Origin: Antedon mediterranea
Taxonomy: Eukaryota > Echinodermata > Crinoidea > Comatulida > Antedonidae
Length of the DNA: 64,000 nt
Direction: 5' to 3'
Assembly: GCF_964355755.1 (NCBI RefSeq)
Contig: NC_092671.1
Coordinates: 33,685,304 to 33,749,303, forward strand
Part shown: one piece after another, positions 1,900-63,583 of the stretch
How the letters are laid out: the number at the start of each line of letters is the position of its first letter
Numbering within the stretch: the stretch's first letter is position 1
Notes under the pieces: generated by a model
What the model was told of the DNA's origin: nothing
Database searches by the model: none
What the model saw: only the letters and a program-made list of their open reading frames with translations
Program-made: the position numbers and the translations under genes

Positions 1900-4800
1900 A
1901 TTATGACAGAATTCGTCGACAAGCACGTAAGTAAACTAAACGTTGATTTAACTGTGATAAAACGGCTTAAATATAAATTCGTGTTCATATTTTGTTATTT
2001 CTTTTGCTTTTTATTTCAGGAACGCCCTCTTGGGATGAAATGATAACTAATAGTAAGTAAAAAAGGTGGATGTCATACAAATATCTATAAAAATTGAAGG
2101 CCTACGGTGATTGTTATTCATATTTTGAAACAACTCTCTTTCAGATTATGACAGAGCTCGTCGATATGCCAGTGAGTAAATTAAAGTTAAGAGCATTATT
2201 TTGATAAAAAAGCATGTAATTAACTATTTGAAACTCTTCATATTTTGCTCTTTGTTTCAGGAACTCGTTATATCTTGAATGAAATCAATCTATAACAGTT
2301 ACTCATATTTTAAAACAAATCTCTTTCAGATTATGACAGATATCGTCGACAAGCACGTAAGTAAACTAAACATTGCTTCAACTGTGATAAAACGGCTTAA
2401 ATATAAATTCATGTTCATATTTTTTATTTATGTATGTATGTGTTTATTTATTTTTTTTATTTATTTTTCTCTTTATTTCAGGAACGCCCTCTTGGGATGA
2501 AATGATAACTAACAGTAAGTAAAAAAGATGGATGTCATACAATTTTCTATAAAAATTGAAAATTAAGTGTGACATAGTTCATATATAATTTTAATGTCAC
2601 CATCAGGATGATCTGGGTATTATGATGACATTTTATTTCTTTCAAAAATACAATCAGCAATAAATCGACATAAATCATGCCTCTTTACCATAAAATACAC
2701 AAACAAGATTAAATAGTTATTAATGCTTGGTTCGACCAAACAACAAGTTCCCAATCAAAACGCAACAGTTTAATTGTCGTTTAATATGTATCGGCTAATT
2801 ATCGATTAATAGTATTATTGGCTGAGGAAACACGGTGTAAACATAAACAGATATATTGATGGAACGTACAGTAAATAATATACAATACACATAATTAAAT
2901 GTAGGCCCGCCGTGATTGTTATTCATATTTTGAAACAACTCTATTTCAGATTATGACAGAGCTCGTCGATATGCACGTGAGTAAATTAAAGTTAAGAGCA
3001 TTATTTTGATAAACAGGCATGTAATTAATTAAACTATTTGAAACTGTTCATATTTTCCGCTTTGTTTCAGGAACTCGTTATATCTGGAATGACATCAATG
3101 ATGACAGTAAGTTACAAAGATGAATGCATTTTGTCAAACTTGATCGTGTTGAATGAATGTATCGATGATTTTACAACCCCAAGCCTTATACATTAATATG
3201 CTACAATCGATTATTTTACAAATACATTTGATTGCATATTGTGTCTTTTTCTTGTCTGCTGGATTTATTGTAGTTGGTAAAATTAACATGAATAAGACAA
3301 GCAACAGAACAAACAACAACGACCCAGAAATAGTTCTATAAAACTGAACAAGTAATGTAGGCCTACTTATAGGTCAAAGAAGTTGAAATTAAAGAAAAGA
3401 TTAAAGCATAATTATAATGATGAATGAAAATATTTATATCCATCTAGTCATTTCAAATTTTACTTGTTTAGTAAATAACGGAGTTTCACGATCATGTTGA
3501 TTAGATATCTTTTTAAAACGTTATACTACCTTGATAAATAAAAATATTCATATTTCTCTAGTAGCTAGATCAACTTTCGTATGCACTTTGAGGTCCAGAG
3601 AATTTGACTTCAGAAATTGGTTTAGGATGGTCAAACAATCATTATAGGCTTGGTTACACATTTTTAAAATGTGGCGAAAGGTCAAAAGGTCAGGGTGAAA
3701 GGTTAACAAACTAAACACCAATAGGTCCTTAAATCTCGACAACCACTGGTCACAGCGAGGTAATTTTGGTCTCAAATTGATCAGAAGGTATACATTTTAG
3801 TCAAAAATTACCGAAAATGCCATTTCTGACCTTTGACCCACAACCCTGGGCATCTATTTATCTCCATAACTACTGGTCGTAGACACTTGAATTTGGTTTT
3901 AAATTGTTCGAAATATATATTTTGTTATTTGTTAAACATTTTTAAAAATGTTACAAAAGGTCAAAGGGTCAGGGTCAAGGGTTATATGAACAAATAAATA
4001 AAGGTATTTGTATCTCGGCAACCACTGGTCGCAGCAAGTCAATTTTGGTTTCAAAATGTTCAGATGGCATACATTTATATTCCGTCTAATGGGGCATTTT
4101 AGTAAAAATGATCAGAAATGCCATTTCTGACCTTTGATCCACAGGGCATCTTCATATCTCTGTAAGTATTGGTCGTAGAAACTTAAATTTGGTATCAAAT
4201 TGTTCGAAATATACATATTTACATTCATTGTAATAGAAAATGTGGTAAAAAGATGAACAAAAAATAATATTACTAATGTTTCAAACAAAAACAAATCTCT
4301 ACTCAACTTATCCTTAAACAGTAATGTTATGCAATAACTGATACTTTAAATTGTTTCAATTTCAAGTACTAGTTATTGCTGTCCACGAGAACATTTTGAT
4401 ATAAACGTCAAGCTCAACAGTTCTTTACAGAATGCTAAAAGTAACTCGCCTTGTGTATCCGATTAAACGCCCCAAGCATTTATTGTTCAAAAGGGTTTTT
4501 AGGGGGAGGGGATGCATATTTATTTGGGGTATAATATTGTAACATGTATAATCAAATAAATACCACCTAGATGTATAAAACTACAGCACAATTAATATCA
4601 AAAAATGATAAAATTATGTCAAAATGCTTGGTAAATTGTAGATTATGGTAGTTAATGTGATACAATTATTTTGTAAATGCATGTGGCTGATCGTTTATCC
4701 CACATGGTGTCCTATTGGAGGAAATGGTGGCGTTTATTTGAGGGAGGCTTTTATCCAAAGCGGGTGTTAATTCGAATAAATACTCGAGCTCAACAGTTAA

Positions 4801-6205
4801 AAATGCTAGAAGTAACTTACCATAGTTAAACGGGCATTTATTTATTCAGGGAAGGCGTTTATTTTGTTTGGGTGTAGTAATGGTAACATGTATAATCAAA
4901 TAAATACACCCAAGATAAAAAAAAATAAATATAATAAGAATAATAACTGGATTAAACCTCATTCTATCCTTGTGCAAGTACAATCATGTAATAAAAGGTA
5001 TCAGAGACAACTATAGACCAATTCATTGTCATTATTCCGTATCCCTGTTACATAATATTTTTGAATGTTACCGACAAAACTTATACATAATATGTATAAG
5101 TTTTGTCGGTGTATATTATACACGTCTGTTCCCAGTGTAGATAATAAAACAATATATGTTTCTGGAGATTTATTATCAATACTATAGGGTAATGCGTTTA
5201 AGAGCTTCGGCTCATTGCATACCCGTTTTGTATCAAATAAGTTTATAGAAATATTCTTGTGAAAGAAATACTGTATTATTTTGTTGTTGATACAAATAAA
5301 TGGTACGTATATAGTACCGCGAATGATACCACTAGAAACTTTGACATGTTTTAGGTACTGAATGCATTGACAATAAAAGCATCAGAAGTTATCATGATAA
5401 ATTCATACTACAACAATGTACTACAGTACACAAGGGTGTTTTCAGGAAAGCTGGACATATTGTACAATAGTAATGAAACTATGTATTGGCATTTAAAAAT
5501 ATGCAAAAATTGTTGTCAAATTGTAGTCACAAACAAACAGATGATAGAATGAAGATCCATTATGAGTGCAATCGTGTCAGGATAATGATATGTCATTGTT
5601 TTATTTCATTATACTGGCACCTGGAGAAGATCCATTTAATGTTATCTATGACACTGTCACTATTCTAAAAGACAGAAACATTTCGTTAAAGAGCATAAAG
5701 AAGAAAACGAATCATGTAAAGTACCTTTTATCAGTTGAGAAACAAATTATAATTATTAAAATTAGAGTATTTATTCGAATTAACACCCGCAAATAACAAA
5801 ATGTTTATTTCAAACAATTTAAGACCAAATTCAATTGGTCAGTAGCATTTCCGGTAATTTTGACTAAAATTTCCCATTAGACTGAATATAAATGTATACC
5901 TTCTGATCAATTTGAAACAAAAATTACCTCACTGTGACCAGTGGTTGTTGAGATTTAAGGACCTATTTGTGTTTAGTTTGATAACCTTTCACCCTGACCT
6001 TTTGACATTTCGCCACATTTTCAAAATGTGTAACCAAGCCAATAATGATTGTTTGATCATCCTAAACCAATTTCTGAAGTCAAATTCTCTGGACCTGAAA
6101 GTGCATATACGAAAGTTAATCTACCTACTAGAGTATATATCCATTGTGTCAATTCAAATGTTTCATGCTTTCTCTATTTTAGGTGGTATCGGAGAAGAAC
6201 CTTAA
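1900..6205 (+). CDS. Micro-exon peptide-precursor gene, locus A (5' end missing)
   Basis: Nine exons with AG acceptors and mostly GTAAGT or GTGAGT donors, each starting with two bases and ending with one base of a split codon (phase 1-1): 1900-1926 YDRIRRQA; 2020-2052 TPSWDEMITN; 2145-2171 YDRARRYA; 2261-2291 TRYILNEINL then stop; 2330-2356 YDRYRRQA; 2482-2514 TPSWDEMITN; 2950-2976 YDRARRYA; 3071-3106 TRYIWNDINDD; terminal 6183-6205 GIGEEP then stop. AATAAA lies at 6419. The R-x-R-R motifs suggest convertase cleavage into short peptides. Locus D (35186-42045) has the same order. No signal exon is seen to the left, and the duplicated block starts at 1811, so locus A may lack its own 5' half (a pseudogene) or extend beyond the window. 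A 2.6-kb transposon sits in the last intron. Function is unknown. Confidence 0.6.
2261..2291 (+). CDS. Stop-bearing micro-exon in the middle of locus A
   Basis: The acceptor tttgtttcag is intact, and the exon reads TRYILNEINL followed by TAA in the family frame. Its usual donor has been replaced by CTATAACAGTTACTC, which runs within 30 bases into the polypyrimidine tract of the next exon. The locus D copy (40667-40701) has the same change, so it predates the duplication. If included, the exon would end translation early; if skipped, the longer frame is kept because neighbours are phase 1-1. Confidence 0.5.
3554..6133. mobile_element. 2.6-kb TIR DNA element inserted in the last intron of locus A
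   Basis: The left end (CTCTAGTAGCTAGATCAAC, then TTTCGTATGCAC and on to about 3800) is the inverted complement of the right end (about 5865-6133, ending CTACTAGAG). The arms are about 250 bp and give mirror-image frames of no biological meaning at 3548-3775 (-) and 5912-6205 (+). The paralogous intron of locus D reads ATTCATAT then CCATTGTG near 41975 with nothing between, so this is a clean filled/empty pair. The arms have internal repeats of about 380 bp (3600-3900 against 3990-4230), each with CCATTTCTGACCTTTGA. No transposase frame was found. Confidence 0.75.
5070..5110. repeat. 41-bp perfect palindrome
   Basis: ACCGACAAAACTTATACATA is followed by one base (A, 5090) and then its exact reverse complement. 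It lies inside the 3554-6133 element. It could be a cruciform or a replication or termination hairpin of that element, or a relic of a nested insertion. Confidence 0.85.
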
Positions 6206-6960: not shown

Positions 6961-6984
6961 CAATTGTGTGCAAGGAGAGGGCAG

Positions 6985-9593: not shown

Positions 9594-9599
9594 CACTGC

Positions 9600-10890: not shown

Positions 10891-11721
10891 GAGTAGTCAG
10901 GTGGCACTTTTTGTGAGAAATAGAATAATAATAGAATTGTTAAAAAACAGACCAACACCATTGTAATGCTTTAACAATACAAGATTATGCATCTCCTGAG
11001 ACTAAACAATATATTGGCTAACATAACGCTATTACGTTATACAGCCATACCGTAAATAAAATGGTGGGTATCAGTATTTGCATAAAGTAACTCTACAGTG
11101 TTTATAGGTTACAGGACATTAATTAACATTCAAATTAATAGAAACAGTAAGTTTTTAAAACCTTTCAAACAGGTGAATAATTAATAAAAGTCCCAAATAC
11201 CGAATTAAAAAATTATCTAAGTCACCAAAACGATTATAAATGTGACAGGTTACTGGACTTGTTTCCACGAAGACCGTAGTCTGGTTTAGTTTACTCCTTT
11301 AGGAGGTAGGCCTGCTGAAAGAAAATGGAAATTGTTTTAAAAGTTAATATCATTTTAACATGCGTATACAATACCAACTATAATAACTACGTTATGCGAA
11401 ATCTTATTCCCATGTGATATTATGCTGTTCGCACTGTTATGCCTTATAAAAATTACATGATAGGCCTGATTGTCATATAAACAACACCATTAATAGGATT
11501 ATTACCGATTAAATCGCTTTACACACAATATTGTATTTAAAGATATTTTTAGGAAGCACTTCTTTAATTTGTTTCCTGTTTTCAAATGATATATTATCAG
11601 CATTCAATCAGAAACAGATACATTTGGCTTCTTGTTAAAAGGCATTGATATTATGTGAAATGATATTTTTTATTGTTATAAGAGAATATTAGGGATTACC
11701 GGGAAAAAAAGTTGAGCAGGG
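10891..11721. other. Duplicated intergenic spacer, no gene seen
   Basis: This stretch matches 42366-42532 plus 44235-44883 almost base for base, interrupted there by a 1.7-kb insertion. It holds no phase-consistent exon and no RNA gene. It separates the 3' end of locus A from the minisatellite downstream of locus B, so two convergent genes end on either side. Confidence 0.5.
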
Positions 11722-14130
11722 TTCAATTATACCAAACGCTGGTTTGCAACGAAGGCGTACTGCCATACCTCGGGTAGGTTTATTATTAGGTTCAATTATA
11801 CCAGACGCTGGTTTTCAACGAAGGCGTACTGTAATACCTTGGGTAGGTTTATTACTGGGTTCAATTATACCAAACGCTGGTTTGCAATGAAGGCGTACTG
11901 CCATACCTCGAGTAGGTTTATTATTGGGTTCAATATACCAACGTTGGTTTGCAACGAAGGCGTACTGCCATACCTCGGGTAAGTTTATTATTGGGTTCAA
12001 TATACCAAACGCTGGTTTGCAACGAAGGCGTACTGCCATACCTTGGGTAGGTTTATTATTGGGTTCAATATACAAAACGCTGGTTTGCAACGAAGGCGTA
12101 CTGCCATACCTCGGGTAGGTTTATTATTGGGTTCAATATACCAACGTTGGTTTGCAACGAAGGCGTACTGCCATACCTCGGGTAGGTTTATTATTGGGTT
12201 CAATATACAAAACGCTGGTTTGCAACGAAGGCCTACTGCCATACCTCGGGTAGGTTTATTATTGGGTTCAATATACAAAACGCTGGTTTGCAACGAAGGC
12301 GTACTGCCATACCTCGGGTAGGTTTATTATTGGGTTGAATTATACCAAACGCTGGTTTGTGACGAAGGCGTACTGCCATACCTCGGGTAGGTTTATTATT
12401 GGGTTCAATTATACCAAACGCTGGTTTGTGACGAAGGCGTACTGCCATACCTCGGGTAGGTTTATTATTGGGTTCAATATACCAAACGCTGATTTGAAAC
12501 GAAGGCGTACTGTCATACCTTGGGTAGGTTTATTACTGGGTTCAATTATACCAAACGCTGGTTTGCAACGAAGGCGTACTGCCATACCTCGGGTAGGTTT
12601 ATTATTGGGTTCAATTATACCAAACGCTGGTTTGCAACGAAGGCGTACTGCGATACCTCGGGTAGGTTTATTATTTGGTTCAATTATACCAAACGCTGGT
12701 TTGCAACGAAGGCGTACTGCCATACCTCGGGTAGGTTTATTATTGGGTTCAATTATACCAAACGCTGGTTTGCAACGAAGGCGCACTGCCATACCTCGGG
12801 TAGGTTTATTATTGGGTTCAATTATACCAAACGCTGGTTTGCAAGGAAGGCGTACTGCCATACCTCGGGTAGGTTTATTACTGGGTTCAATTATACCAAA
12901 CGCTGGTTTGTGACGAAGGCGTACTGCCATACCTCGGGTAGCTTTATTATTGAGTTAAATTATACCAAACGCTGGTTTGCAACGAAGGCGTACTGCCATA
13001 ACTCGGGTAGGTTTATTATTGGGTTCAATTATACCAAACACTGGTTTGCAACGAAGGCGTACTGCCATACCTCGGGTAGGTTTATTATTGGGTTCAATTA
13101 TACCAAACGCTGGTTTGCAACGAAGGCGTACTGCCATACCTCGGGTAGGTTTATTACTGGGTTCAATTATACCAAACGCTGGTTTGTGACGAAGGCGTAC
13201 TGCCATACCTCGGGTAGGTTTATTATTGGGTTCAATATACAAAACGCTGGTTTGCAACGAAGGCGTACTGCCATACCTCGGGTAGGTTTATTATTGGGTT
13301 CAATATACCAACGTTGGTTTGCAACGAAGGCGTACTGCCATACCTCGGGTAGGTTTATTATTGGGTTCAATATACAAAACGCTGGTTTGCAACGAAGGCG
13401 TACTGCCATACCTCGGGTAGGTTTATTATTGGGTTGAATTATACCAAACGCTGGTTTGTGACGAAGGCGTACTGCCATACCTCGGGTAGGTTTATTATTG
13501 GGTTCAATTATACCAAACGCTTGTTTGTGACGAAGGCGTACTGCCATACCTCGGGTAGGTTTATTATTGGGTTCAATATACCAAACGCTGATTTGAAACG
13601 AAGGCGTACTGTCATACCTCGGGTAGGTTTATTACTGGGTTCAATTATACCAAACGCTGGTTTGCAACGAAGGCGTACTGCCATACCTCGGGTAGGTTTA
13701 TTATTGGGTTCAATTATACCAAACGCTGGTTTGCAACGAAGGCGTACTGCGATACCTCGGGTAGGTTTATTATTTGGTTCAATTATACCAAACGCTGGTT
13801 TGCAACGAAGGCGTACTGCCATACCTCGGGTAGGTTTATTATTGGGTTCAATTATACCAAACGCTGGTTTGCAACGAAGGCGCACTGCCATACCTCGGGT
13901 AGGTTTATTATTGGGTTCAATTATACCAAACGCTGGTTTGCAACGAAGGCGTACTGCCATACCTCGGGTAGGTTTATTACTGGGTTCAATTATACCAAAC
14001 GCTGGTTTGTGACGAAGGCGTACTGCCATACCTCGGGTAGGTTTATTATTGGGTTCAATTATATCAAACGCTGGTTTGCAACGAAGGCGTACTGCCATAC
14101 ATTGGGTAGGTTTATTATTTGGATTTTAAT
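11722..14130. repeat. 69-bp minisatellite, about 35 units
   Basis: The unit contains GGTTCAATTATACCAAACGC, TGGTTTGCAACGAAGGCGTA and CTGCCATACCTCGGGTAGG. Most units are 69 bp, some about 66-68 (ATACCAACGTTGG variants). A higher-order copy is visible: 12335-12913 recurs at 13434-14012, an offset of 1099 bp. Because 69 is divisible by three, long frames stay open on both strands (plus: RWFATKAYCHTSGRF; minus: KPAFGIIEPNNKPTRGMAV). The paralogous array has about ten units (44884-45431, 46709-46850). Confidence 0.9.
13508..14087 (-). CDS. Possible repeat-coding terminal exon of locus B
   Basis: Reading minus from the donor of exon 14158-14184, the first consensus acceptor in the array is GCAAACCAG near 14073-14081. 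Splicing there enters in phase 1 and yields A then FDIIEPNNKPTRGMAV, continuing as 23-residue repeats for about 190 residues to a stop at 13508. Each unit also has a GAG-gtatgg site that could act as a donor. A frame kept open by a 69-bp period can be accidental. In the locus E copy, the Helitron-like insertion at 46708 creates an in-frame TAG at its border. Confidence 0.25.
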
Positions 14131-14157
14131 TTGACTTATTGTACAGTTGTAACTTAC

Positions 14158-17100
14158 CTTCAGTGTTTATTTTCTTAGGAGGTCCTGAAACAATTAAACA
14201 AAAACATAGGAACATTTTGAAATTTATATTCATGTTAACATTTGGATAAGTTATTAGGTTTGCAGGTTTGGTTATCAAATGTTATCTACTTTTTAACTGG
14301 TTTATTATCCCAAACGATCTGTGTTATAATCTGAAAAGGAATCAGTAATTAAGTATTTTACATTAGTATTGATTGTAGTTGAACATGGTGCATACGACTT
14401 TCATAATTACGGTTGAATTGTGTTTTGGCTTTTTAAAAAAAATTTAGATATTTTGATTTATGTGACATATCCGTTTAAGAGTTTCTTCTTTCTTCTGGAC
14501 ATATTTCGATTTGGTTTTCATTACTTACTTTCAGCGTTTATTTCCATAATAGAAGACTCTGTAACAAAGATTATTAGTAGGAAACATGAAGAATACATTG
14601 TCATTTTCAAACTTAATTATCAAATCCCCTTTTATTTCAACATCTAGAAAGATATTTTGGATTAAAAAAGAAGTTATCAACCTTTTCCTAATACAGGATG
14701 TGCGAATACGGGATGATCGACACACACAATTGGTGCTGACCAGGGTTCAATTAGACAAAAGACTGATTAGCGCTGAGGGCGTATCCATACTTGGTTTCGG
14801 TTTAGGTTTTTTTCTCACACGTCTGTAGAGCACTTAGATGTTTCACGACATCAAAGAGATTAGCATGCATTAAACTTTCAGAATGTTAAAGCGGCAGAAG
14901 AAAACTATAAAATGTGCAAACTTATTTCCCCACATGTGAGTAAGGTCGTAATATTGATTACGCCTATAATTATAAAATACTAGAGGGTGAGCTCGCTTCG
15001 CTCGTTCCCCCTCTAGGAAGTGTAGACGATGGTTCTCGGAATAATATGGAATGAGACGGGTAAACAGGTTTTAAAAGGACGTTCTCCTTGTACGTTTTCT
15101 GTCGGTTACCATTATTGAAAATGCTTGACAGATCGTAAAACTAAACCTGTCTTAGATGATTAATAATATTTTAAAGGATAGTGTTTATTGTTTGGTAGGG
15201 TCATTATAGGTTGGAGGTGGGGAGGCGGAGATCATTTGAGGTAGGTGCATATTCGAGGGATAATTTTGTGTTTTAATAATATGGTAACATTATTTTATAA
15301 TCAAATTAAATCCTCTAATAGATATGAAAAGTGGTAAAAAGAAAAACAGATGCTTGGTAAATTGTAGATAATAGAGATGAATTCTACTACAATTAGTATA
15401 ATTGTGTTATTATAAATATAATACTTTATTTGTGTGTATTATAAATGAGGATGGGCGTTTATTATTCAAAGTGATGTTTTTTTTGGAGAGGCGTTTATTA
15501 AAATAAATACCATCCTACTAATTAATACTTTATTTAATTTAAACATCTTTTGAAATTAACTTCCGCGACAAAGTAAGCCGTTTCAGCCCAAGAAAAAAGA
15601 CGTTTTAGACGGCTTGCAACATGGGCGGACATTCTGGTCCTAACGGACTTTATGGCGTATATTTACTTTTATCTTTATTAATTTGATTGCAGTATAATTT
15701 TTATTTTTTAACTACTGTACCTTCGCAGGCGTGGTCCGCTTCTAAAATAAACAAAAACATCTAAAATGGCTATAGCCTATAACTATATAACGACCAACTT
15801 AGTTGAAACCAGGTTGTTGCAAAGTGAACTAATTGTGAACCCAGAAATTACTTTGACTACGTAGAATTAAAATTGAGTCGAAAATCTGACGTTGAAATCA
15901 TAAATTTTGTTAAAAAACTCTTTATAATATCTTTCTAAGATAGAAATATGGAACAATATCGTAATAGTAAAATCCATTGTTGTCAAATTTAGATTTCAAG
16001 GTACATCTGAGATAGATCAGGTAGGCATCCAAGGCAGAGATTTGTACCGAAGTTTTTTTTTATGCTCGTCTAATTTATGTCAGAATTAACCATAATTTAT
16101 ATATAGATTATGATTATTAAAATAATAAAATAGAATAATATAGTATACCATCACCTTCTTCACCTCGACGAACTCTGTCATGAACTGAAATAACATAACA
16201 TATTAAAAACGGGTGATTAATAGCAAGAATATTGCATTAAAACATTGAATGTTAGTGTTTTGTGTTAAACAGATGTAAAGTTCATGCTTAAGATTGATTC
16301 CATTGTGTTTTTGAATTCATTATTCACTTTGTAAACGTAATATGTGGTCCCCTACCGGTATCGTTTATATTATAGTAATGTGTATTAAATTTGCGAATAA
16401 ATATAATTATTACTGTACATTGAACATAAAAAGAAATATATAATACATAATTATATTACATGGTATTAAAATGTTGAAAATCATAAATTATCCAAGCAAT
16501 GATTATCCGCTATCATCGTATTTATTTTATTTTATGAATACAGTACTATTATTCTATTATGAGGTTCTGAAAAAGATCAGACAAAAAGCATGAACACTTT
16601 GAAATTTATATTCATGTAACAGATAAGTTGATGTTTGTAACCGTGTTTATCAAAAATGTGTTATCTACTTTTAGTTTAGGTCAACATTTGAAGGATTTGT
16701 TTAATCCAAAAAGCAATTAATCAAAGTAGCCTACTAATGTAAGAATGTATGCCTATGGTTATAATGGAACATGGTACACAGACAATGCAAATGGTTGTAT
16801 TTGTGTTCGAATTAAGGTCACGTGCAGTGCGGTACGGTAATTAGTTCTACCTAACAGAAAAGTGACGATAAGTAATGATAATAAATTTAATGATAAAGTG
16901 ATGATAATTAATGTTTCTAATTTGTCTCGTGTCGTCTCTATATAAATTTCTTTCTAGTCCTAGGCCTATATTGAAGAAATAATTCGGACTAGGTGTTAAA
17001 CTTCTTCTTATATTGATACCGTTTGAGCTCTTAAGTCGGCGTTCACAGTATAAATACAGTTCCTTCGCATTAATACCTATCGTCAGGATCATCCCCGATG

Positions 17101-17976
17101 ATGATAGAATTGATTTAGAAATAATGATTACTTGCACCATGACGTGCATTCGATAACGTTTGTAGAATAAAGCTCTTTCTTCAATCTACACTATCAAATT
17201 AGTTTGACAAAAAAGGGTTTTTTACAAATTATACTGCATGTTATGCATATTTTGTTTTATTTTTAAACTTACCTTCAGCGTTTAATCCAGATCTTTTAGC
17301 AGCAGGTTCTGAAGCAATAAAGAAAAAATTAACTTTAAAGTGTATAAGTTTTCAAATTAGATTAATAATATATTTTGCTTTGATTTTTGTTTTCGCGTTC
17401 GATTCGCGAACACATTTGCCTAGAGTGAAAATCGGCTTAAAGACTTACTCCTCTGACATTGCCCAAATTCAGGTTGCAAGAAGAACACGACCAAAAATAC
17501 TACCACCAACGTTTGTAATCTCCTGAAAATTGTACTCAAAATATTATTTTGAAAACAAACATAGGATTAATAAGGTCAGTGAATATTTAAGCACCTACTC
17601 CGCTTCCGCTTTAGATCCAGTTCGCGTCAGTACATACAGCATTTACGGCTTTTCGTTTATACGACGCGCCACGCGGATACTTCTGACTTATAGATGTGCG
17701 TATAGTGTAGCCGGCTAGTCGCGTATAGCAGTGTGAAAACTGAACAGTGAGATGACGGGCCACGCGGATACTTCTGACGTATAGATTTCCGCATAGTGTA
17801 GCCGGCTAGTCGCGTATAGCAGTGTGAAAACGAAACAGTGAGATGTGATTGTATTAATCGCAGCCGGAACCAGAGCAGATGTGAAAACAGTGAGATGGGA
17901 TTGTATTAGCCGCAGCCGGAACCGTAGCAGATGTGAAAGACGCTTTAGCTGGTACTTACAATTGAGCAGCTGCCAT
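14158..17976 (-). CDS. Micro-exon peptide-precursor gene, locus B
   Basis: Exons in transcript order: 17960-17976 start exon (MAAAQ plus TT); 17449-17522 signal exon; 17273-17308 PAAKRSGLNAE; 16155-16184 HDRVRRGEE; 14529-14558 SSIMEINAE; 14158-14184 PPKKINTE. Split codons give L, K, V, E and R at the five joins, with no stop. Donors are gtaagt except gtgatg after 16155; all acceptors end in cag. The product starts with a signal peptide and carries one R-x-R-R convertase site. The terminal exon is not certain: the minisatellite to the left is open in the right phase. An exon-like stretch with an in-frame stop (16532-16566) lies between the second and third body exons. Most of this unit is duplicated in locus E. 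Confidence 0.65.
14988..15025. repeat. Hairpin resembling a Helitron-like 3' end
   Basis: CTAGAGGG, then GCTCGCTTCGCTCG, then CCCTCTAG form an inverted repeat like the terminal hairpin of the Helitron-like family at 45432-46708 (CTAGATGGTACGC ... GCGTACCATCTAG). It is copied at 47706-47742. It is probably the fossil end of a related element in an intron of locus B. Confidence 0.4.
16532..16566 (-). pseudogene. Exon-like unit with in-frame stop in locus B
   Basis: An intact acceptor (tctttttcag) is followed in family phase by PHNRIIVLYS and TAA. The upstream intron matches that of PPKKINTE, so this is a duplicated exon whose donor decayed. Equivalent units occur at about 49395 (PHNGITV...), 56574 (PPNRIIVFMK, stop) and 56937. 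They could serve as alternative last exons or be dead copies. Confidence 0.35.
17449..17522 (-). CDS. Signal-peptide exon of locus B
   Basis: Acceptor tctcctga is ttttcag on the minus strand; the donor is gtaagt. The 74-nt exon reads RLQTLVVVFLVVFFLQ then PEFGQCQR: a hydrophobic core of about 13 residues followed by a polar, cleavable region. Entry phase 2 and exit phase 1 match the signal exons at 29150-29235, 35186-35229 and 63516-63583. Confidence 0.7.
17630..17945. repeat. Tandem repeats just upstream of locus B
   Basis: A unit of about 110 bp with GCCACGCGGATACTTCTGAC and GTAGCCGGCTAGTCGCGTAT occurs twice (17665-17745 and 17758-17845). A unit of about 60 bp with GCAGCCGGAACC and GCAGATGTGAAA also occurs twice. 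They lie within intron 1 of locus B and are CpG-containing in an AT-rich setting, so a regulatory role is possible but not shown. Confidence 0.6.
17960..17976 (-). CDS. Start exon of locus B
   Basis: ATGGCAGCTGCTCAATT is followed by gtaagt (17959-17954). The context CCATCATGG is favourable. Seventeen bases leave two over, and TT joined to the first base (G) of the signal exon gives Leu, so the reading continues as MAAAQ-L-RLQTLVV. The phase match and consensus donor support the assignment. The transcription start was not located. Confidence 0.55.
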
Positions 17977-24337: not shown

Positions 24338-24385
<48 letters not shown>

Positions 24386-29806: not shown

Positions 29807-29859
<53 letters not shown>

Positions 29860-35185: not shown

Positions 35186-35229
35186 AGGCTTGTTGGTTTT
35201 ATTTTTAGTAGTGTTTGTGCAATGTGCAA
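35186..35229 (+). CDS. Signal-peptide exon of locus D
   Basis: Between ttgttacag and gtaagt, the exon reads GLLVLFLVVFVQCA, leaving A, which with AA of exon 38031 gives Lys. It is shorter than the other signal exons (44 nt). An alternative acceptor two bases on (CAGAG) would change the entry phase to 1. Confidence 0.6.
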
Positions 35230-36082: not shown

Positions 36083-36160
<78 letters not shown>

Positions 36161-46850: not shown

Positions 46851-46886
46851 GATTTTAATTTGACTTATTGTACAGTTGTAACTTAC

Positions 46887-49800
46887 CTTCAGTGTTTATT
46901 TTCTTAGGAGGTCCTGAAACAATTAAACAAAAACATAGGAACATTTTGAAATTGATATTCATGTTAACATTTGGATAAGTTATTAGGTTTGCAGGTTTGG
47001 TTATCAAATGCTATCTACTTTTTAACTGGTTTATTATCCCGACGATCTGTTTTATAATCTGAAAAGGAATCAGTAATTAAGTATTTTACATTAGTATTGA
47101 TTGTAGTTGAACATGGTGCATACGACTTTCATAATTACGGTTGAATTGTGTTTTGGCTTTTTAAAAAAAATTTAGATATTTTGATTTATGTAACATATCC
47201 TTTTAAGAGTTTCTTCTATCTTGTGGACATATTTCAGTTTGGTTTTTATTACTTACTTTCAGCGTTTATTTCGATAATAGAAGACTCTGTAACAAAGATT
47301 AGAAGGAAACATGAAGAATACATTGTCATTTTCAACATTAATTATCAAATCCCCTTTTATTTCAACATCTAGAAGGATATTTTGGATTAAAAAAGAAGTT
47401 ATCAACCTTTTCCTAATACAGGATGTGCGAATACGGGATGATCGATACACACAATTGGTGCTGACCAGGGTTCAATTAGACAAAAGGCTGATTAGCGCTG
47501 AGGGCGTATCCATACTTCGTTTCGGTGTAGGTTTTTTTCTCACACGTCTGTAGAGCGCTTAGATGTTTCACGACATCAAAGAAATTAGCATGCATTAAAC
47601 TTTTAGAATGTTAAAGCGGCAGAAGAAAACTATAAAATGTGCATACTTATTTCCCCACATGTAAGTAAGGTCGTAATATTGATTACGCCTATAATTATAA
47701 AATACTAGAGGGTGAGCTCGCTTCGCTTGCTCCCCCTCTAGAGGAAGTGTAGACGATGGTTTTCGGAATAATATGGAATGACACGGGTAAACATGTTTTA
47801 AAAGGACGTTCTCCTTGTACGTTTTCTGTCGGTTACCATTATTGAAAATGCTTGACAGATCGTAAAACTAAACCTGTCTTAGATGATTAATAATATTTTA
47901 AAGTGTAGTGTTTATTGTTTGGTAGGGCCATTATAGGTTGGAGGTGTGGAGGCGGAGATCATTTTTTAGGTAGGTGCATATTCGAGGGATATGTTTAATT
48001 TTGTGTTTTAATAATATGGTAACATTATTTTATAATCAAATAAAATCCTCTAATAGATATGAAAAGTGGTAAAAAGAATAACAGATGCTTGGTAAATTGT
48101 AGATAACAGTGAGATGAATTCTACTACAAAAAGTATAATTGTGTTATTATAAATATAATACTTTATTGTTGTGTATTATAAATGAGGATATGCGTTTATT
48201 ATTCAAATTGATTTTTTTAGGAGACGCGTTTATTCAAATAAATACCGTCCTACTAATTAATACTTTATTTAATTTAAACATCTTTTGAAATTAACTTCTG
48301 CGACAAAGTGGGCCGTTTCAGCCCAGGAAAGAAGACATTTTAGACATCCTGGTACTAACGGGACACAGATAGCTTACAGTTATTCCTGCCAGCTTACTCA
48401 ATAAAACTCGGCTATCGGGATTTCACTCGATTTAAAAAAAATCAAATCTCCCTATGTAAACTATTAATACTATTCCCCAAAATATATTTCGATGCTTTAT
48501 GGCGTATATTTAATTTTATCTTTATCAATTTGCAGTATAATTTTTATTTTTTAACTACTGTACCTTCGCACGCGTGGTCCGGTCCTAAAATAAACAAAAA
48601 CATCTAAAATGGCTATAGCCTATGACTATATAACGACCAACTTAGTTGAAACCAGGTTGTTGCAAAGTGAACTCATTGTGAACCCGGAAATTACTTTGAC
48701 CACGTAGAATTTAAATTGAGTTGAAAATCTACCGTTGAAATCATAAATTTTGTTAAAAAACTCTTTATAATATGTTTCTAAGATAGAAATATGGAACAAT
48801 ATCGTAATAGTAAAATCCATTGTTGTCAAATTTAGATTTCAAGGTACATCTGAGATAGATCAGGTAGGCATCCAAGGCAGAGATTTGTACCGAAGTTTTT
48901 TTTATGCTCGTCTAATTTATGTCAGAATTAACCATAATTTATATATAGATTATGATTATTAAAATAATAAAATAGAATAATATAGTATACTCTCACCTTC
49001 TTCACCTCGACGAACTCTGTCATGAACTGAAATAACATAACATATTAAAAATGGGTGATTGATAGCAAGGAATATTGCATTAAAACATTGAATGTTAGTG
49101 TTTGTGTTAAACAGAGGTGAAGTTTATGCTTAAGATTGATTCCATTGTGTTTTTGAATTCATTATTCACTGTGTAAACGTAATATGTGGTCCCCTACCGG
49201 TATCGTTTATATTATAGTAATGTGTATTAAATTTGCGAATAAATATAATTATTACTGTACATTGAACATAAAAAGAAATATATAATACATAATTATATTA
49301 CATGGTATTAAAATGTTGAAAATCATAAATTATCAAAGCAATGATTATCCGCTATCATCGTATTTATTTTATTTTATGAATACTGTTATTCCATTATGAG
49401 GTTCTGAAACAGATCAGACAAAAGGCATGAACACTTTGAAATTTATATTCATGTAACAGATAAGTTGATGTTTGTAACCGTGTTTATCAAAATGTGTTAT
49501 CTACATCTAGTTTAGGTCAACATCTTGAAGGTTTTGTTTAATCCAAAAAGCAATTCACCAAAGTAGCCTACTAATGTAAGAATGTATGCCTATGGTTATA
49601 ATGAACATGGTACACAGACAATGCAAATGGTTGTATTTTTGTTCGAATTAAGTTCACGTACCGTGCGGTACGGTAATTAGTTCTACCTAACAGAAAAGTG
49701 ACGATGCGTAAAGATAATAAATTTAATGATAAAGTGATGATAATTAATGTTTCTAATTTGTCTCGTGTCGTCTCTATATAAATTTCTTTCTGAAGGAAGG

Positions 49801-52800: not shown

Positions 52801-55800
52801 TTTCCAAAATTATTGAAAAACTCATGTATTCTAAACTTTCTGATTATCTCACAAAATTTGATATACTTAATAAACGCCAATATGGTTTTCGAAAAAATCA
52901 CTCTACATCCCATGCCGTTTTAGATCTTATTAATAATATTACAAATTCATTTGAATCAAAAGAAAATTTATTAAGTTTATTTATTGATCTTTCAAAGGCC
53001 TTCGATGTTATTAATCACAATAATTTAATTAAAAAACTTGAGTGCTATGGAATTAGAGGTATTTCATTGAATTGGTTTAATAGTTATTTGAAAGATAGAA
53101 AACAATATGTTGCATTAGGATCTTGTACATCGTCGACGATGGATATTACTTGCGGAGTGCCACAGGGATATGTGCTTGGGCCATTGCTCTTCCTTATTTA
53201 TGTTAATGATCTGGCTAATGTCAGTAACAAATTGCAAGTAATATCCTTCGCCGACGACACCACCTTATTTTACTCTAATTCCAATATTGATTTATTATTT
53301 ACTACATTCAATGATGAATTAACAAAATTTTGGGACTGGTTTATTTCAAACAAATTACTTATTAATACTCTTAAAACAAATTATTAAATTTTTCACAATT
53401 CTCAACGTAAACTAAAAGTTGATGACCTAAATATACTTCTTGGCGGAATTCAAATTGAACGCAAAACTGAAACACTTTTTTTAGGTGTATATATTCATGA
53501 AAACCTCAAATGGACCAGTCATCAAAATTACGTTTCGAAAAAAATATCAAGATCTATTAGTATTATTAACAGACTTAAGCACTTCTTCCCTCTAAATATT
53601 TTTAATTTCTCTTTATAACACACTTGTACTTCCTTATTTCTAGTATTGTAACATTATTTGGGCTGCAGATTACTCTTCTAATATTGCTAGATTAACTAAA
53701 TTACAAAAACGTGCAGCTAGAATTATTACTTTTTCACCATATAGAACCTCATCTGAACCCCTTTTTAAACGTCTTGGTATATTAAAATTAACGGATATCC
53801 ACAATGTTCAAGTTGCCAGTTTTATGTTTAATTATTTTAAAAACCAACTTCCTATTTCTATGATTGATATGCTCTGTAAACGTACCAAATTTCACAATTA
53901 CAATTTAAGAACTTCTCATTTAAACATTCCTTTTGCTAGACTTACAAAAACTAAATTTTTTATAACTATATCAGGTCCTAATTTGTGGAATCATATCCCA
54001 CCAAATATCAAAACGTCAATATCATTATTTACTTTCCGAAAAAAGTTAAAGAATCATTATATATCTAAATATTATACTGCTTAGTTAATATGCTTATTAT
54101 CATTATTTATACTCATATACTATTTATGTCTTACACAAAATATTAGTTGTTGTTTATTATTGCAATCTTTAATCTATACTATATATAATGTATATAGTAT
54201 ATACTATATATATACTGGAATTATAATTTATGTATACATATTTTTTTTTTTCATTTACCAATATCGGTAGTTATTTCATTTATAATTATCATGAAACTAT
54301 TGAAATATAATTTAAATAATTTTTATAAAGAAGATGTTAGTTATGTTATTATACTGTAATTTTTTATCCTAAATTATATAATTATATATTCTAGGTTATT
54401 TTTATTTTTTTAGTAATGTGTTTTGTTATGGGTCCCTACGAGACAAGTTTTTAACTTCTAGAAGGGATCTATGATAATAATGACTACCAATTACTGCTTT
54501 ATCTATGTTCACTTTAATATCTTTTTTCTATTTTGTATATATTCATTCATTATTATCTAAATAAATATTATCTGAATCTGAATCTGAATACCGTTTGAGC
54601 TAAGTCGACGTTCACAGTATAATTACAGTTCCTACGCATAAATACCTATCGTCAGAATCATCCCCGATGATGATAGAATTGATTTAGAAATATTGATTGC
54701 TTGCACCATGACGTGCATTCGATAACGTTTGTAAAGCTCTTTCTTCAATCTACACTATCAAACTAGTTTGACAAAGGAAGTTTTTTTTACAAATTATACT
54801 GCTTGTTATGCATATTTTTTTTAAATTTTTAAACTTACCTTCAGCGTTTAATCCATATCTTTTAGCAGCAGGTTCTGAAGCAATAAAGAAAAAAATAACT
54901 TTAAAGTGTATAAGTTTTCAAATTAGATTAATAATATATTGTGCTTTGATTTTTTTCATGTTTTCAATTCAATTCAACTCAAAATAACATTTAGTTACTT
55001 TTAATTGTAGTTTTTGTGTCAGGGAAATGAGTAATTAGATGTTTTGCCCTCCTCTGACGTAATTTGTACTTTATACTAAGTACATTTGAGAATACTTGAC
55101 CATCCGAGAACTATACTTGTGAATTTTTTCTCAAATGTACTTAGTATAAAGTACAAATTACGTCAGAGTAGGGCAAAACATCTAATTACTCAAACTACAA
55201 TTACAATCCTGTTGGTGCAGTACCCGCTGCTTACTTGGGCTCGAATCTAACCACAAGCCATCAGCGCAAGCTCGGTGGTCTAGAGGTATGAACGCCAGGC
55301 TAAGTGATTAGGTTATTAGGTTTGCGGGTTTGGTTATCAAATGTTATCTCTTTTTAGCTAGTTTATTATCCCGAACAAGCTGCTATAATCTGAAAAGGAG
55401 TCAGTAATTAGGTATTTTACAGGAGTGTTGCTTGCAGTTGAACGAAATTACGGTTCTATTGTATTTTGGCTTATTTTAGTTTGAATTAAGACATTGAGAT
55501 TTATGTGACACATCCTTTAATTTCAAGAGTTTCTTCTTTCTTGTGGACATACTTCGGTTTGGTTTTTATTACTTAGATTATAGTATATACGTATTTTTGT
55601 AACTTACTTTCAGCGTTTATTTCCATAAAAGAAGGCTCTGTAACAAAGATTAGAAGGAAACATAAAGGATACATTGTCTTTTTTAACCTTAATTATCTAA
55701 TGTGTTATCTCCTTTTAGTTAATTCAACATCTAGAAGGATATTTTGGATTAAAATAGAAGTTATCAACGTTTTCCGATAACGGGATGTGCGAATACGGGA

Positions 55801-61800: not shown

Positions 61801-62974
61801 TCTTAGGTAATTTTTTTATTAAACATATAGGCCTACTTCCTTGGCGAATCCATGCCTTTTAAATCATTTAACAAATTCGTAAACGGATCGTAGTACTACT
61901 GTACAGTGAAACCAAAAATCACCGCATCAACAACCTCGTGCGATGTACGATCTGTTGTTCTTTGCATGCTGCAGATCAACATTGGTAGAGTCCATTAATT
62001 AAGAGGGTGTTTAAAAACGTGATAACTATTAAAAACCTGTCTCAACCACTGTGTAATCAAAGCGTTTATTTAATTAAAACTTGGATCCCCTCAAAATTGA
62101 TAATCGCGTATTCTGGTTATCACGTGATTGATTCACGGTTGGTTGCACGCTTCTTTTTTACGTCCGGAAGAGGTGAAATATGTTCGCCAATTTGGCAAAT
62201 AAGACAATATTGTTCACCATTTCGTTTCACAATTGCAGTTTGGCTCCCCCGCCCCCCCCCCCCCAAAAAAAAGTCGACATTCATTTTCGTCCATTTAGGG
62301 TCGGTCTGGCGTGGCCAACACAATTTTTTTAGGCCTTATATACGTCTCGTCAGGATCATCCCCGATGATGATAAAATTGATTTAGAAATATTGATTGCTT
62401 GCACCATGACGTGCATTTCATTCAGTTTGTAGAGTAAATCTCTATCTACAATCTACACTATCAAACTAGTTTACAAATCATAATATATTGTATGTTATGT
62501 ATATTTAGTTTTTTTTAAACTTACCATCAGCGTTTAATCCACTTTTTTTAACAGGAGGTCCTGAAGCAATAAAAAGAATATTAACTTTAAAGTGTAAAGC
62601 TTTTTAAATTAGAACAATCTATAATATATTTTGCTTATTTTAGAGAAACATTTTTATTGTCAAAGACTTCGTTTTGGATACTATATAAACCTTCCAAGTA
62701 AACGGACAGCCTAAACATTCAACATCGATACGACTTCGCGCTTAAGTGAACGTTAAACAAATTCATGTTTATAAGTCGAAATGGTACAAACATTTTATCT
62801 AGGGGAAAATAAACAATGATTTTATCTTTCGTCAAACGAATAGAAGAACAAGACTTTTTTTGTATAACAATGACCTTTAAACGACAGACCTAATCATTAG
62901 ACGACGCGGCATTCCAATTATAGACATAGTTTGCCATATTGGATAATTTGAAACAGTAGGATTTCACATTGCAA

Positions 62975-63058
<84 letters not shown>

Positions 63059-63583
63059 CTGTCTAATATATTAAAATTATAAGCACACAAATTGTAGTGT
63101 TAATAATGTCAATGAATAACCAAACAATCATAGGCTTAGGCCTAGCTATGCTAAAGCGCCTAGGTTAGAAAAGCTGCGATAACATTAAAGCTAAATTAAT
63201 TATTTATTTTGTCTAAATTTATACGTATCTCTCCAAAAATTCCGTCGCGATACAGTATTTTCATTGTTTAAAAAACGGCGGTGCTGTTGGATTTCACGTT
63301 CAACTTTTTTTTTCATACACAGAAGAAACGGAACAATACTATTTAACGATCTTTAAATAGTTCGTAATTTCATGACATGTAACCCACAATCGTCCAATCA
63401 AATGACCGGAATTTATTTAGGTGTTATATGTTTTACAATATATTAAAAATAAGCAGAAATTGAGAAATTATACACTTTTTAAAACATACATTACATTAAT
63501 AAAACAATAACTTACTTGCCATGGCCAAGTGGTGGACTTGAAACACAAACAATATAACAAATACAACTACCAGCGATTTCATT
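46887..63583 (-). CDS. Micro-exon peptide-precursor gene, locus E
   Basis: Exons in transcript order: 63516-63583 signal; 62525-62560 PPVKKSGLNAD; 56148-56177 HDRVRRGEV; 55608-55637 PSFMEINAE; 54839-54874 PAAKRYGLNAE; 48997-49026 HDRVRRGEE; 47257-47286 SSIIEINAE; 46887-46913 PPKKINTE. Split codons give R, V, E, K, V, E and R. The order NAE, HDRVRR, NAE, then NAE, HDRVRR, NAE shows two exon cassettes in series, the second being the duplicated unit also present in locus B. Introns hold a LINE, a 40-bp minisatellite and a Harbinger-like element. Two R-V-R-R sites are present. The terminal exon is uncertain. The start may be the Met inside the signal exon; ATGGCTTTTAC at 63829-63839 is a weak alternative. 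Confidence 0.6.
49954..50802 (+). CDS. LINE ORF1 protein, L1-ORF1p-like
   Basis: 282 residues, apparently intact. Residues 50-118 are heptad-like and Glu/Lys/Leu-rich (coiled coil), followed by RRNNLMFTGIPE at 121-132 and IQRAHRVG about 35 residues later, the RRM and C-terminal signature of transposase-22/L1 ORF1 proteins. Such proteins bind element RNA and form trimers in the ribonucleoprotein particle. The ATG at 49954 follows a short 5' region. Antisense frames over it are shadows. Confidence 0.8.
   Translation: MANVENKEPNISNLNISAAEPNTWLSTLIKSIMGCKTIADIISTLCDAVTKIVSLEKDITTLNLEITGLQKELRNLHADMQENSDFMDVKLKDIAEDTQQSTTECIEEIRDKIDNLEGRQRRNNLMFTGIPEQAEDSEGTVNFLSSFISNTTGIKIANDDIQRAHRVGPRNTTRDKPRPLVAYFLRYSTKERVRKAAPKVRPKFKDNNIYVNNDFISKVISRRKALYSSMKYLHSNKVKAWLHLDKLRYIDANGYVRTFIDMDHLAKYYPNLKEAHAPVATE
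50987..51772 (+). pseudogene. LINE ORF2, N-terminal endonuclease part
   Basis: APE-type endonuclease motifs: LNIRS at residues 90-94, SETW at 119-122 and GDFN at 227-230. The frame ends at a stop just before the catalytic SDH motif, which appears in another frame at the start of the next segment. So a frameshift splits the endonuclease near 51760-51795. Confidence 0.8.
51795..53387 (+). pseudogene. LINE ORF2, endonuclease end and reverse transcriptase
   Basis: Begins with the endonuclease motif SDHLP (residues 24-28), then the reverse transcriptase: NYRPISLLSVFSKIIEKL, catalytic FIDLSKAFD at 396-404, GVPQG at 454-458 and FADD at 485-488. These are the A, B and C motifs of CR1/L2-clade enzymes. 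A premature TAA at 53385 interrupts the thumb region. The frame differs from the preceding segment. Confidence 0.85.
53388..54084 (+). pseudogene. LINE ORF2, C-terminal remnants
   Basis: After the stop, the same frame continues with LGVYIHENLKWTSHQNYVSK to about 53620. A second frameshift leads to a third frame holding the C-terminus, with NYNLRTSHLNIPFARL and GPNLWNHIPPNI (53824-54084). LWN.IP followed by F...LK is the standard end of this family. Confidence 0.75.
55003..55202. mobile_element. Foldback MITE with 61-bp arms
   Basis: 55030-55090 and 55130-55191 are near-exact inverted copies (GAGTAATTAGATGTTTTGCC, TCTGACGTAATTTGTACTTT, ATACTAAGTACATTTGAG). Shorter outer arms are AATTGTAGTTT and AAACTACAATT. 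The whole would fold into one long hairpin. It sits in locus E just beyond the duplication edge. Confidence 0.75.
55268..55305 (+). tRNA. Truncated tRNA-like 5' half
   Basis: AGCTCGGTGGTCTAGAGGTATGA matches the acceptor and D arm of a Pro-type tRNA, but the anticodon arm is disrupted and the T arm is absent. It is probably a tRNA or SINE fragment. Confidence 0.3.
56570..57275. repeat. 360-bp tandem duplication of an intron segment
   Basis: 56570-56910 and 56935-57275 are near-identical (GAGGTTCTGAAA.TGATCAGAC, ATTCATGTAACAGATA, GATCACGCGCCGTGCGGTAC). They match 16560-16880 and 49395-49715. Each begins with an exon-like acceptor. It shows that locus E grows by copying exon-plus-intron units. 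Confidence 0.7.
57461..59510. repeat. 40-bp minisatellite, about 50 units
   Basis: The unit TAATGTATTGTAATATACCC(C/T)CAGTACCTTGGTACAGTAG contains the inverted repeat GTACCTTGGTAC. Units are very uniform to about 58850 and vary in length after that. Minus-strand frames rich in YNTLLLYQGTEGI are readings of the repeat. It lies in the intron between 62525 and 56177 of locus E. Confidence 0.95.
59905..62335. mobile_element. Harbinger-like TIR element with TTA target duplication
   Basis: TTA borders both sides (59902-59904, 62336-62338). The ends are GGCC-A11-TTGTGTTGGCCACG and CGTGGCCAACACAATTTTTTTAGGCC, inverted repeats of about 27 bp. Equivalent unfilled sequence (CGCATTAATACCTATCGTC) occurs at 17068-17090. 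TWA duplications and GGCC ends fit PIF/Harbinger. The interior includes a CpG-rich patch (60940-61290) and frames without recognisable transposase motifs. Confidence 0.65.
60940..61290. other. CpG-rich patch inside the Harbinger-like element
   Basis: GGCCGCGCCATATTG, GCGGACTAAGCTCCCGAGGG, CCGGTGCGCG, GGCGACGACGACGCTC and GGGGCGGCTCCCGATAGG stand out from the AT-rich surroundings. No coding frame is supported. It could be a captured promoter or 5' UTR. Confidence 0.3.
62979..63056. repeat. (TA)n microsatellite
   Basis: 39 uninterrupted AT units in intron 1 of locus E. The minus-strand YIYI frame is spurious. Confidence 0.9.
63516..63583 (-). CDS. Signal-peptide exon of locus E
   Basis: Between ttcacag and gtaagt, the 68-nt exon reads MKSLVVVFVILFVFQV then HHLAMA, leaving A. 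It is a typical signal peptide with a basic residue, a core of about 13 hydrophobic residues and a small-residue end. The Met is one base inside the exon, so the exon can carry the start codon itself. Confidence 0.65.

What the first reader, a model, noticed from the sequence alone, without database searches (positions are those of the whole stretch)
1900..63583. A cluster of micro-exon genes encoding secreted, modular peptide precursors
Seen: about 45 exon candidates of 18-57 nt on both strands, almost all with cag acceptors and gtaagt/gtgagt/gtaggt donors, nearly all divisible by three and phase 1-1, grouped behind four signal-peptide exons. Split codons at every join avoid stops. Known: schistosome micro-exon genes have this design (signal peptide, symmetric tiny exons, variable secreted products). 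Inference: an independent micro-exon peptide system in a marine invertebrate, able to make many products by exon skipping. Ordinary gene finders would miss it because no exon exceeds 90 nt.
Basis: partly seen in the sequence, partly recalled or inferred. Interest (0 to 1): 0.95.

Follow-up and report, generated by a model that had tools for sequence, protein, structure and literature searches.

The report
Micro-exon secreted peptide genes in feather star
In a feather star (a crinoid, a relative of sea stars) several neighbouring genes are built from tiny interchangeable exons that encode secreted proteins apparently meant to be cut into short peptides, so that skipping an exon changes the set of peptides made; what the peptides do is unknown.

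Summary
Exon chains read from the window equal, letter for letter, four proteins that NCBI lists as "uncharacterized protein" of the crinoid Antedon mediterranea, isoforms X2 and X5. I place 43 exons of 11-86 nt in three annotated genes (A, B, C) and two partial copies. All 22 internal exons of A-C (21 annotated, one skipped) are multiples of three in phase 1-1.

They are of two kinds. "Cleavage" exons (27-33 nt in the window) encode [H/Y]DRxRR or HGSRIRR, a furin-type R-x-R-R site. "Cargo" exons (27-57 nt) encode what lies between. Isoform X5 of gene A skips one cargo exon. The same kind of unit recurs over about 0.28 Mb of C2 and on C8.

Cleavage exons diverge at about a third of the rate of their flanks, cargo exons at about two thirds. 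Best explanation: convertase-cut secreted multi-peptide precursors, diversified by exon duplication and skipping. They work like schistosome micro-exon genes and frog skin-peptide clusters but show no sequence relation to either. Expression site, cleavage and activity are unshown.

The parts
63516..63583 (-). gene A exon 2, signal peptide (MKSLVVVFVILFVFQVHHLAMA), phase 2-1; exon 1 (MSSK, 14 nt) is at 64926-64913, outside the window
   Evidence: P0002/P0003 exact
62525..62560 (-). gene A cargo exon PPVKKSGLNAD, 36 nt, present in X2, skipped in X5
   Evidence: P0002 vs P0003
56148..56177 (-). gene A cleavage exon HDRVRRGEV, 30 nt
55608..55637 (-). gene A cargo exon PSFMEINAE, 30 nt
54839..54874 (-). 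gene A cargo exon PAAKRYGLNAE, 36 nt
48997..49026 (-). gene A cleavage exon HDRVRRGEE, 30 nt
47257..47286 (-). gene A cargo exon SSIIEINAE, 30 nt
46887..46913 (-). gene A cargo exon PPKKINTE, 27 nt
44450..44478 (-). gene A terminal exon GLPPKGVN-stop; tandem acceptors: exon starts at 44475 (X2) or 44478 (X5)
30585..30598 (-). gene B exon 1 (MSSK), 14 nt
29150..29235 (-). gene B exon 2, signal peptide, 86 nt
   Evidence: P0001 exact
28804..28842 (-). gene B cargo exon IIPERGGGGFGI, 39 nt
28058..28090 (-). gene B cleavage exon EHGSRIRRDG, 33 nt
27807..27851 (-). gene B cargo exon IFQGRGGQKGVNRI, 45 nt
27096..27128 (-). gene B cleavage exon EHGSRIRRDG, 33 nt
26846..26890 (-). gene B cargo exon IFQGRGGQKGVNRI, 45 nt
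23886..23915 (-). gene B cleavage exon HGSRIRRDG, 30 nt
23631..23687 (-). gene B cargo exon IFPIGGIGVGRIGEGYGI, 57 nt
21944..21954 (-). gene B terminal exon DGN-stop, 11 nt
32371..32420 (+). gene C exon 1 (MSKTSYCSVPIIMSTK), 50 nt
   Evidence: P0004 exact
35186..35229 (+). gene C exon 2, signal peptide core GLLVLFLVVFVQCA, 44 nt
38030..38083 (+). gene C cargo exon APPPPPPPAVWNYGTTE, 54 nt
38477..38503 (+). gene C cleavage exon YDRIRRQA, 27 nt
40083..40115 (+). gene C cargo exon TPSWDEMITN, 33 nt
40551..40577 (+). gene C cleavage exon YDRARRYA, 27 nt
40736..40762 (+). gene C cleavage exon YDRYRRQA, 27 nt
40882..40914 (+). gene C cargo exon TPSWDEMINN, 33 nt; absent from annotated isoform X2
41345..41371 (+). 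gene C cleavage exon YDRARRYA, 27 nt
41465..41500 (+). gene C cargo exon TRYIWNDINVD, 36 nt
42023..42045 (+). gene C terminal exon SGIGEEP-stop, 23 nt
1900..3106 (+). gene C' internal exons 1900-1926, 2020-2052, 2145-2171, 2330-2356, 2482-2514, 2950-2976, 3071-3106; its 5' exons lie left of the window (about -11.0 kb and -9.4 kb)
6183..6205 (+). gene C' terminal exon SGIGEEP-stop
11286..17308 (-). A' copy: exons 17308-17273, 16184-16155, 14558-14529, 14184-14158, 11311-11286; no signal exon found

Best explanation
These are genes for secreted multi-peptide precursors of a feather star. SHOWN: each annotated gene has a short first coding exon (MSSK or similar), a signal-peptide exon, a run of symmetric phase-1 micro-exons and a tiny terminal exon. 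The micro-exons are of two kinds: 'cleavage' exons carrying R-x-R-R, and 'cargo' exons without it. SHOWN in annotation: isoforms that lack whole micro-exons in frame. INFERRED: after signal-peptide removal, a furin-type proprotein convertase in the secretory pathway cuts after each R-x-R-R. This would free peptides of 9-32 residues (10 of 12 predicted ones are 19-32) that are near neutral and without cysteine. Because the cleavage site and the cargo sit on separate symmetric exons, skipping or duplicating an exon would add, remove or fuse peptides without changing the frame. The array grew by tandem exon duplication and by duplication of gene blocks, with cleavage exons more constrained than cargo exons. 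The most likely role is an external or luminal secretion (mucus, gland or gut; defence or interaction with microbes or predators). That last step is a guess.
For: NCBI proteins P0001-P0004 of A. mediterranea reproduced exactly by exon chains. Isoform X5 lacks exon 62560-62525 and uses the other tandem acceptor. All 22 internal exons of A-C (21 annotated plus 40882-40914) are multiples of three and phase 1-1; the order of cleavage (A) and cargo (c) exons is cAccAcc, cAcAcAc, cAcAAcAc. R-x-R-R is kept in 33 of 37 cleavage exons tabulated (19 distinct cores), with Arg codons changed synonymously (AGA/CGA, CGT/CGC, CGA/CGG/AGG) while x varies (I, V, A, Y, N, F). In chosen paralog pairs cleavage exons differ at 11 of 351 sites against 173 of 2009 in their flanks (12 pairs, Fisher p 1.4e-4), cargo exons at 45 of 507 against 307 of 2419 (14 pairs, p 0.016). 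The same kind of unit occurs on another contig, C8: HERNRRDK, PPAVTGINVES, HDRIRREE, PPGPSGRINVES, HDRIRREE, with a related signal exon MQTLVVVFLAVFFF about 5 kb upstream (that these form one gene is inferred). Predicted peptides.
Against: No peptide, read or expression data could be seen; the isoform names only imply transcript support. The 37 exons were partly chosen with an R-x-[RK][RK] pattern. Left out of that count were at least seven relatives that lack the site or are broken: four copies of HDISSKQE (136967, 135046, 132295, 127985), NERICLNE (-76956), GDRILRELG (-93280) and a decayed copy (29074). Paralog pairs are not independent, so the p-values are optimistic. Codon-position differences over equal-length pairs are nearly even (53, 48 and 58 of 584), so purifying selection on the protein looks weak overall. 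In the same of 16 gaps scored inside exons were multiples of three and 9 were single bases; I take the nine to be misplaced gaps in the nine pairs of 30- with 33-nt exons, but did not check each one (flank gaps: 26 of 121 multiples of three). Gene A puts two cargo exons in a row and gene C two cleavage exons, so alternation is not strict. There is no Gly immediately before any R-x-R-R. N-terminal pro-sequences of ordinary zymogens also carry R-x-R-R (recalled).
Confidence: 0.68

Rival explanations
1. MEG-like secreted disordered proteins that act uncut: micro-exon skipping makes variable surface or gland proteins, and R-x-R-R is only a basic interaction motif.
For: No Pfam family over its cut-off in P0001-P0004; P0002 matches no PDB chain at E<=10 (the other three were not tried); isoforms of one schistosome MEG (2.1) are described as intrinsically disordered (PMC10399815, start of abstract in a search listing).
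Against: The basic motif is the full R-x-R-R furin consensus, kept by synonymous change while x varies, on exons more conserved than their flanks.
Confidence: 0.2
2. Neuropeptide or hormone precursors.
For: Several similar peptides separated by basic sites; predicted peptides starting with Q in gene C.
Against: No Gly immediately before R-x-R-R for amidation in P0001-P0004. SALMFamide precursor genes of the crinoid Anneissia japonica have phase 0 introns and one exon encoding many peptides (PMC9793003, passages seen), unlike here.
Confidence: 0.1
3. Structural or adhesive matrix proteins (Gly-rich and Pro-rich repeats).
For: Gly-rich cargo exons in gene B and on C8 and the Pro-rich exon of gene C.
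Against: Short proteins of 97-130 aa; cut sites between blocks would break a polymer.
Confidence: 0.06
4. Artefact: repeats or transposon debris with chance splice sites.
For: The region is full of satellites and retroelement-like frames.
Against: Exact agreement of 4 of 4 returned annotated proteins; frame and length statistics; reversed-pattern control 0 against 10 matches.
Confidence: 0.01

Closest known systems
Schistosome micro-exon genes (MEGs)
   Same: Signal peptide, most coding sequence in tiny symmetric exons, variants by splicing, fast lineage-specific secreted products (PMC10526429, PMC5825161, PMC4350168; passages seen).
   Different: No sequence relation found; internal exons here are 27-57 nt (24 nt in one outside copy); cleavage-site exons are interleaved with cargo exons; deuterostome host. 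The main text of PMC5825161 has 0 occurrences of 'furin' and of 'cleavage'; I did not look for them in the other MEG papers.
Pipid frog (Xenopus/Silurana) skin antimicrobial and hormone-like peptide gene cluster
   Same: A single cluster of secreted precursor genes in both orientations over about 380 kb, -RXXR- cut sites, tandem-repeated peptide exons (X. laevis), cut sites under purifying selection (PMC3731216, passages seen).
   Different: No sequence relation found; there the peptide region is shared between exons 2 and 3 of genes with 3-5 exons (S. tropicalis), whereas here site and cargo are on separate micro-exons.
Crinoid SALMFamide neuropeptide precursors
   Same: Secreted precursors with several peptides (PMC9793003, passages seen).
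   Different: Phase 0 introns, many peptides in one exon, amidated peptides (same passages).

Membership tests
Schistosome MEG | about 80% of coding sequence in symmetric exons of 6-36 bp (PMC5825161, passage) | tested here: not met
   From lengths, all symmetric internal exons make 219 of 327 nt (A), 282 of 393 (B), 231 of 348 (C, X2), i.e. 66-72%; in B only 96 nt are in exons of 36 nt or less.
Schistosome MEG | wider wording: many exons of 6-81 bp, mostly multiples of three, with introns of 0.1-5 kb (PMC10526429, passages) | tested here: inconclusive
   Internal exons 27-57 nt, all multiples of three, but the signal exon of B is 86 nt and introns run from 93 to 6347 nt: near, not exact.
Schistosome MEG | N-terminal signal peptide, secreted | tested here: met
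   Hydrophobic N-terminus in P0001-P0004; judged by hydropathy and eye, no signal-peptide predictor on hand.
Schistosome MEG | variants by alternative splicing of micro-exons | tested here: met
   P0002 vs P0003; annotation level only, reads not seen.
Schistosome MEG | sequence relation to MEG families | tested here: not met
   Three searches of 5.8 billion proteins gave only A. mediterranea hits at E<=10; short repetitive proteins limit sensitivity.
Pipid AMP/HLP genes | R-X-X-R or dibasic cut sites around each peptide | tested here: met
   (motif only; cleavage not shown)
Pipid AMP/HLP genes | antimicrobial or hormone-like activity | not testable with these tools
   predicted peptides have charge -3 to +2, unlike typical cationic AMPs (recalled)
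Pipid AMP/HLP genes | sequence relation to the frog genes | tested here: not met
   no frog hit at E<=10, with the same limit on sensitivity
Echinoderm amidated neuropeptide precursors | Gly next to the basic cleavage site | tested here: not met
   no G immediately before any R-x-R-R in P0001-P0004
Proprotein convertase substrates | actual cleavage after R-x-R-R in the secretory pathway | not testable with these tools
   -

The most novel reading that the evidence does not exclude
A combinatorial peptide-display system evolved in crinoids, independently of parasites. Protease sites and peptide cargo are separate, freely skippable exon cassettes, so that splicing chooses both which peptides are made and whether neighbours stay fused, as a germline-encoded diversity generator in an animal without adaptive immunity.
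Probability: 0.3. Interest if true: 0.9.

Novelty: new variant of a known kind. Interest (0 to 1): 0.72.

Why it matters
Micro-exon genes were described in blood flukes and tied to life in a host; [quoted passage not shown] A like architecture in a free-living deuterostome would make that explanation testable: micro-exon secreted genes may be a general route to variable secretions. The separation of cut-site exons from cargo exons would also be an unusual way to couple splicing with precursor processing. I saw no paper on this in the held library: 'micro-exon genes'+'echinoderm', 'crinoid'+'micro-exon' and 'Antedon'+'micro-exon' gave 0 papers; 'echinoderm'+'microexon' gave 5, whose titles and abstract openings are on other matters. 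'Antedon mediterranea'+'genome' gave 44, of which I saw the 20 listed. Subscription papers and preprints are not held.

Tried and rejected
Signal-peptide reading of several ATG stretches before cargo exons (14233, 14604, 46962, 47338, 55674, 122845, 123257 on -; 2430, 40836 on +): rejected as polypyrimidine tracts, since the annotated genes use other signal exons. Exon 32023-32049 (RERIRRQT) as part of gene C: rejected, it lies upstream of the annotated start, and a chain holding it had 4 stops in 45 joins. An alternative last exon IGKINMNKTSNRTNNNDQE at 41671 (copy at 3274; identical for about 48 nt, then a 1-nt indel): left open. An exon-like stretch at about 2261-2296 with an in-frame stop (also in the copy near 40666): left open as an alternative end or dead exon. 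A match on C9 lay in simple repeats; a scan of its locus showed no exon of this family. COX1 was not found in the assembly, so the species was named from the protein hits instead. Pfam and PDB searches gave nothing over a cut-off. A sequence model of the cleavage exon was built but the genome search does not take models. No fold prediction was run: short, variable, probably disordered, with no alignment depth. An exon-1 pattern search of the genome did not complete.
Full report
WHAT THE WINDOW IS. The window is G000:C2:33685304-33749303 of a 354 Mb, 18-contig assembly. The protein searches name the species: the only hits are proteins of Antedon mediterranea, a comatulid crinoid. The hits' contig is given as 40,927,303 bases and C2 here as 40,922,303; I cannot explain the 5,000-base difference.

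CHECK OF THE OBSERVATION. With five satellite arrays masked, exon-like segments of 15-60 nt in the window have lengths mod 3 of 61/22/26, against 20.7/18.3/19.8 on average in 30 second-order Markov simulations; phase-1 exons with R-x-[RK]-R number 16, against 0 in 30 of 30. Duplicated exons are counted singly there, so this is not 16 independent events. Length differences between related exons keep the frame (cleavage exons 24, 27, 30 and 33 nt, alignment; cargo exons of gene B 39, 45, 45 and 57 nt).

DIRECT CONFIRMATION. P0001 (130 aa, isoform X2), P0002 (108 aa, X2), P0003 (97 aa, X5) and P0004 (115 aa, X2) are all "uncharacterized protein [Antedon mediterranea]" in NCBI. Exon chains read from the DNA give all four exactly. 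Gene A (-): 64926-64913, 63583-63516, 62560-62525, 56177-56148, 55637-55608, 54874-54839, 49026-48997, 47286-47257, 46913-46887, 44475-44450. Gene B (-): 30598-30585 to 21954-21944, 10 exons. Gene C (+): 32371-32420 to 42023-42045, 10 exons. P0003 is gene A without exon 62560-62525 and with the other of two tandem acceptors at the last exon. P0004 lacks exon 40882-40914, which has intact splice sites and frame in the DNA. That NCBI models contain exons of 11-14 nt makes RNA support likely (inference); I could not see reads.

ANATOMY. Every annotated gene has exon 1 (phase 0-2), a signal exon (2-1), internal exons all 1-1, and a last exon (1-0). Internal exons fall into two kinds. Cleavage exons encode HDRVRR, YDRIRR/RARR/RYRR or HGSRIRR; cargo exons encode PPKKINTE, PAAKRYGLNAE, TPSWDEMITN, IFQGRGGQKGVNRI and the like. 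In 155 possible joins from the signal exon on, skips included, no stop arises at a split codon. Two further chains are partial copies: C' (1900-6205, with its 5' exons near -11.0 and -9.4 kb, in frame as I read them by eye) and A' (17308-11286, no signal exon found). C and C', with the B block and its partner beside them, are a segmental duplication.

BEYOND THE WINDOW. In window +-100 kb (20 loci) cleavage exons continue from -93 kb to +138 kb, with further signal exons at 139696 (MQTLVVVFLVLFLFQAEFGQCQDND) and a copy near -32.6 kb without an ATG at the matching place. A whole-genome pattern for the exon with its splice sites, up to 3 mismatches, found 10 places: 8 on C2 between 33.626 and 33.872 Mb and 2 on C8, with 0 for the reversed control. 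A second pattern for the HGS type found 6, all on C2, control 0. Both patterns are strict and miss known copies, so the counts are lower bounds and do not exclude other loci. The C8 locus shows HERNRRDK, PPAVTGINVES, HDRIRREE, PPGPSGRINVES, HDRIRREE in order, and a signal exon MQTLVVVFLAVFFF upstream.

EVOLUTION. In 12 chosen paralog pairs, cleavage exons differ at 11 of 351 sites against 173 of 2009 in the flanks (p 1.4e-4); in 14 chosen cargo pairs it is 45 of 507 against 307 of 2419 (p 0.016) (flank halves at or under 60% identity were dropped; pairs are not independent). In 80 all-against-all pairs within 12 families, exons are 87.9% identical, splice sites 96.9% and other flanks 76.2%. 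Against a simple story, from the same call: differences by codon position are nearly even (53, 48, 58 of 584); 9 of 16 gaps scored in exons are single bases (probably misplaced gaps between 30- and 33-nt exons, not checked one by one); and the cargo exons of gene B are less alike than their flanks in several pairs. That fits weak constraint or diversification of cargo. R-x-R-R is kept in 33 of 37 tabulated cleavage exons, 19 distinct cores, with synonymous Arg codons; that table was partly built with the motif itself and left out at least seven relatives lacking it (see evidence against).

MECHANISM. Signal peptide plus repeated furin consensus points to a secreted precursor cut by a proprotein convertase (general knowledge; cleavage not shown). 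The cuts would give 12 peptides of 9-32 residues from the X2 isoforms, charge -3 to +2 after trimming of basic ends, with the signal-peptide ends set by eye. Since site and cargo are on separate symmetric exons, skipping a cargo exon removes a peptide part, and skipping a cleavage exon would fuse two. Only the first kind is seen in the annotation.

COMPARISON. It works like schistosome MEGs (definitions from passages) and like the frog skin-peptide cluster (passages), but no sequence relation was found and the narrower MEG exon-size definition is not met. Hence: a new variant of a known kind, most likely of independent origin. I found no report of it in the searches listed under why it matters.

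Noticed in passing
11719-14119, 44885-45432, 46709-46851: The same 69-bp satellite sits in the last intron of both gene A and copy A' (between PPKKINTE and the terminal exon), with about 35 copies in A' and about 8 plus 2 in A; its frames are open on both strands and it mimics exons in a splice scan.
   Followed up: partly
49945-54084 +: What reads like a non-LTR retrotransposon (ORF1-like, endonuclease- and reverse-transcriptase-like frames, recognised by eye, no family search) lies inside the 5.8-kb intron of gene A.
   Followed up: no
-32.6 kb (left of window, -): A copy of the 139-kb signal exon in which the start codon region is replaced by a long CAG/AAC repeat: probably a dead gene start.
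   Followed up: partly
41671 and 3274 +: Possible alternative last exon IGKINMNKTSNRTNNNDQE with two N-glycosylation sequons, about 48 nt identical between copies, then a 1-nt indel.
   Followed up: partly
136967, 135046, 132295, 127985 (right of window, -): Four copies of a cleavage-exon relative, HDISSKQE, that lacks R-x-R-R but keeps frame and splice sites: a changed function or decay.
   Followed up: no
24375-26584: Inverted and tandem copies of a 367-bp unit, 94.5-100% alike in the pairs listed, inside the 2.9-kb intron of gene B.
   Followed up: no
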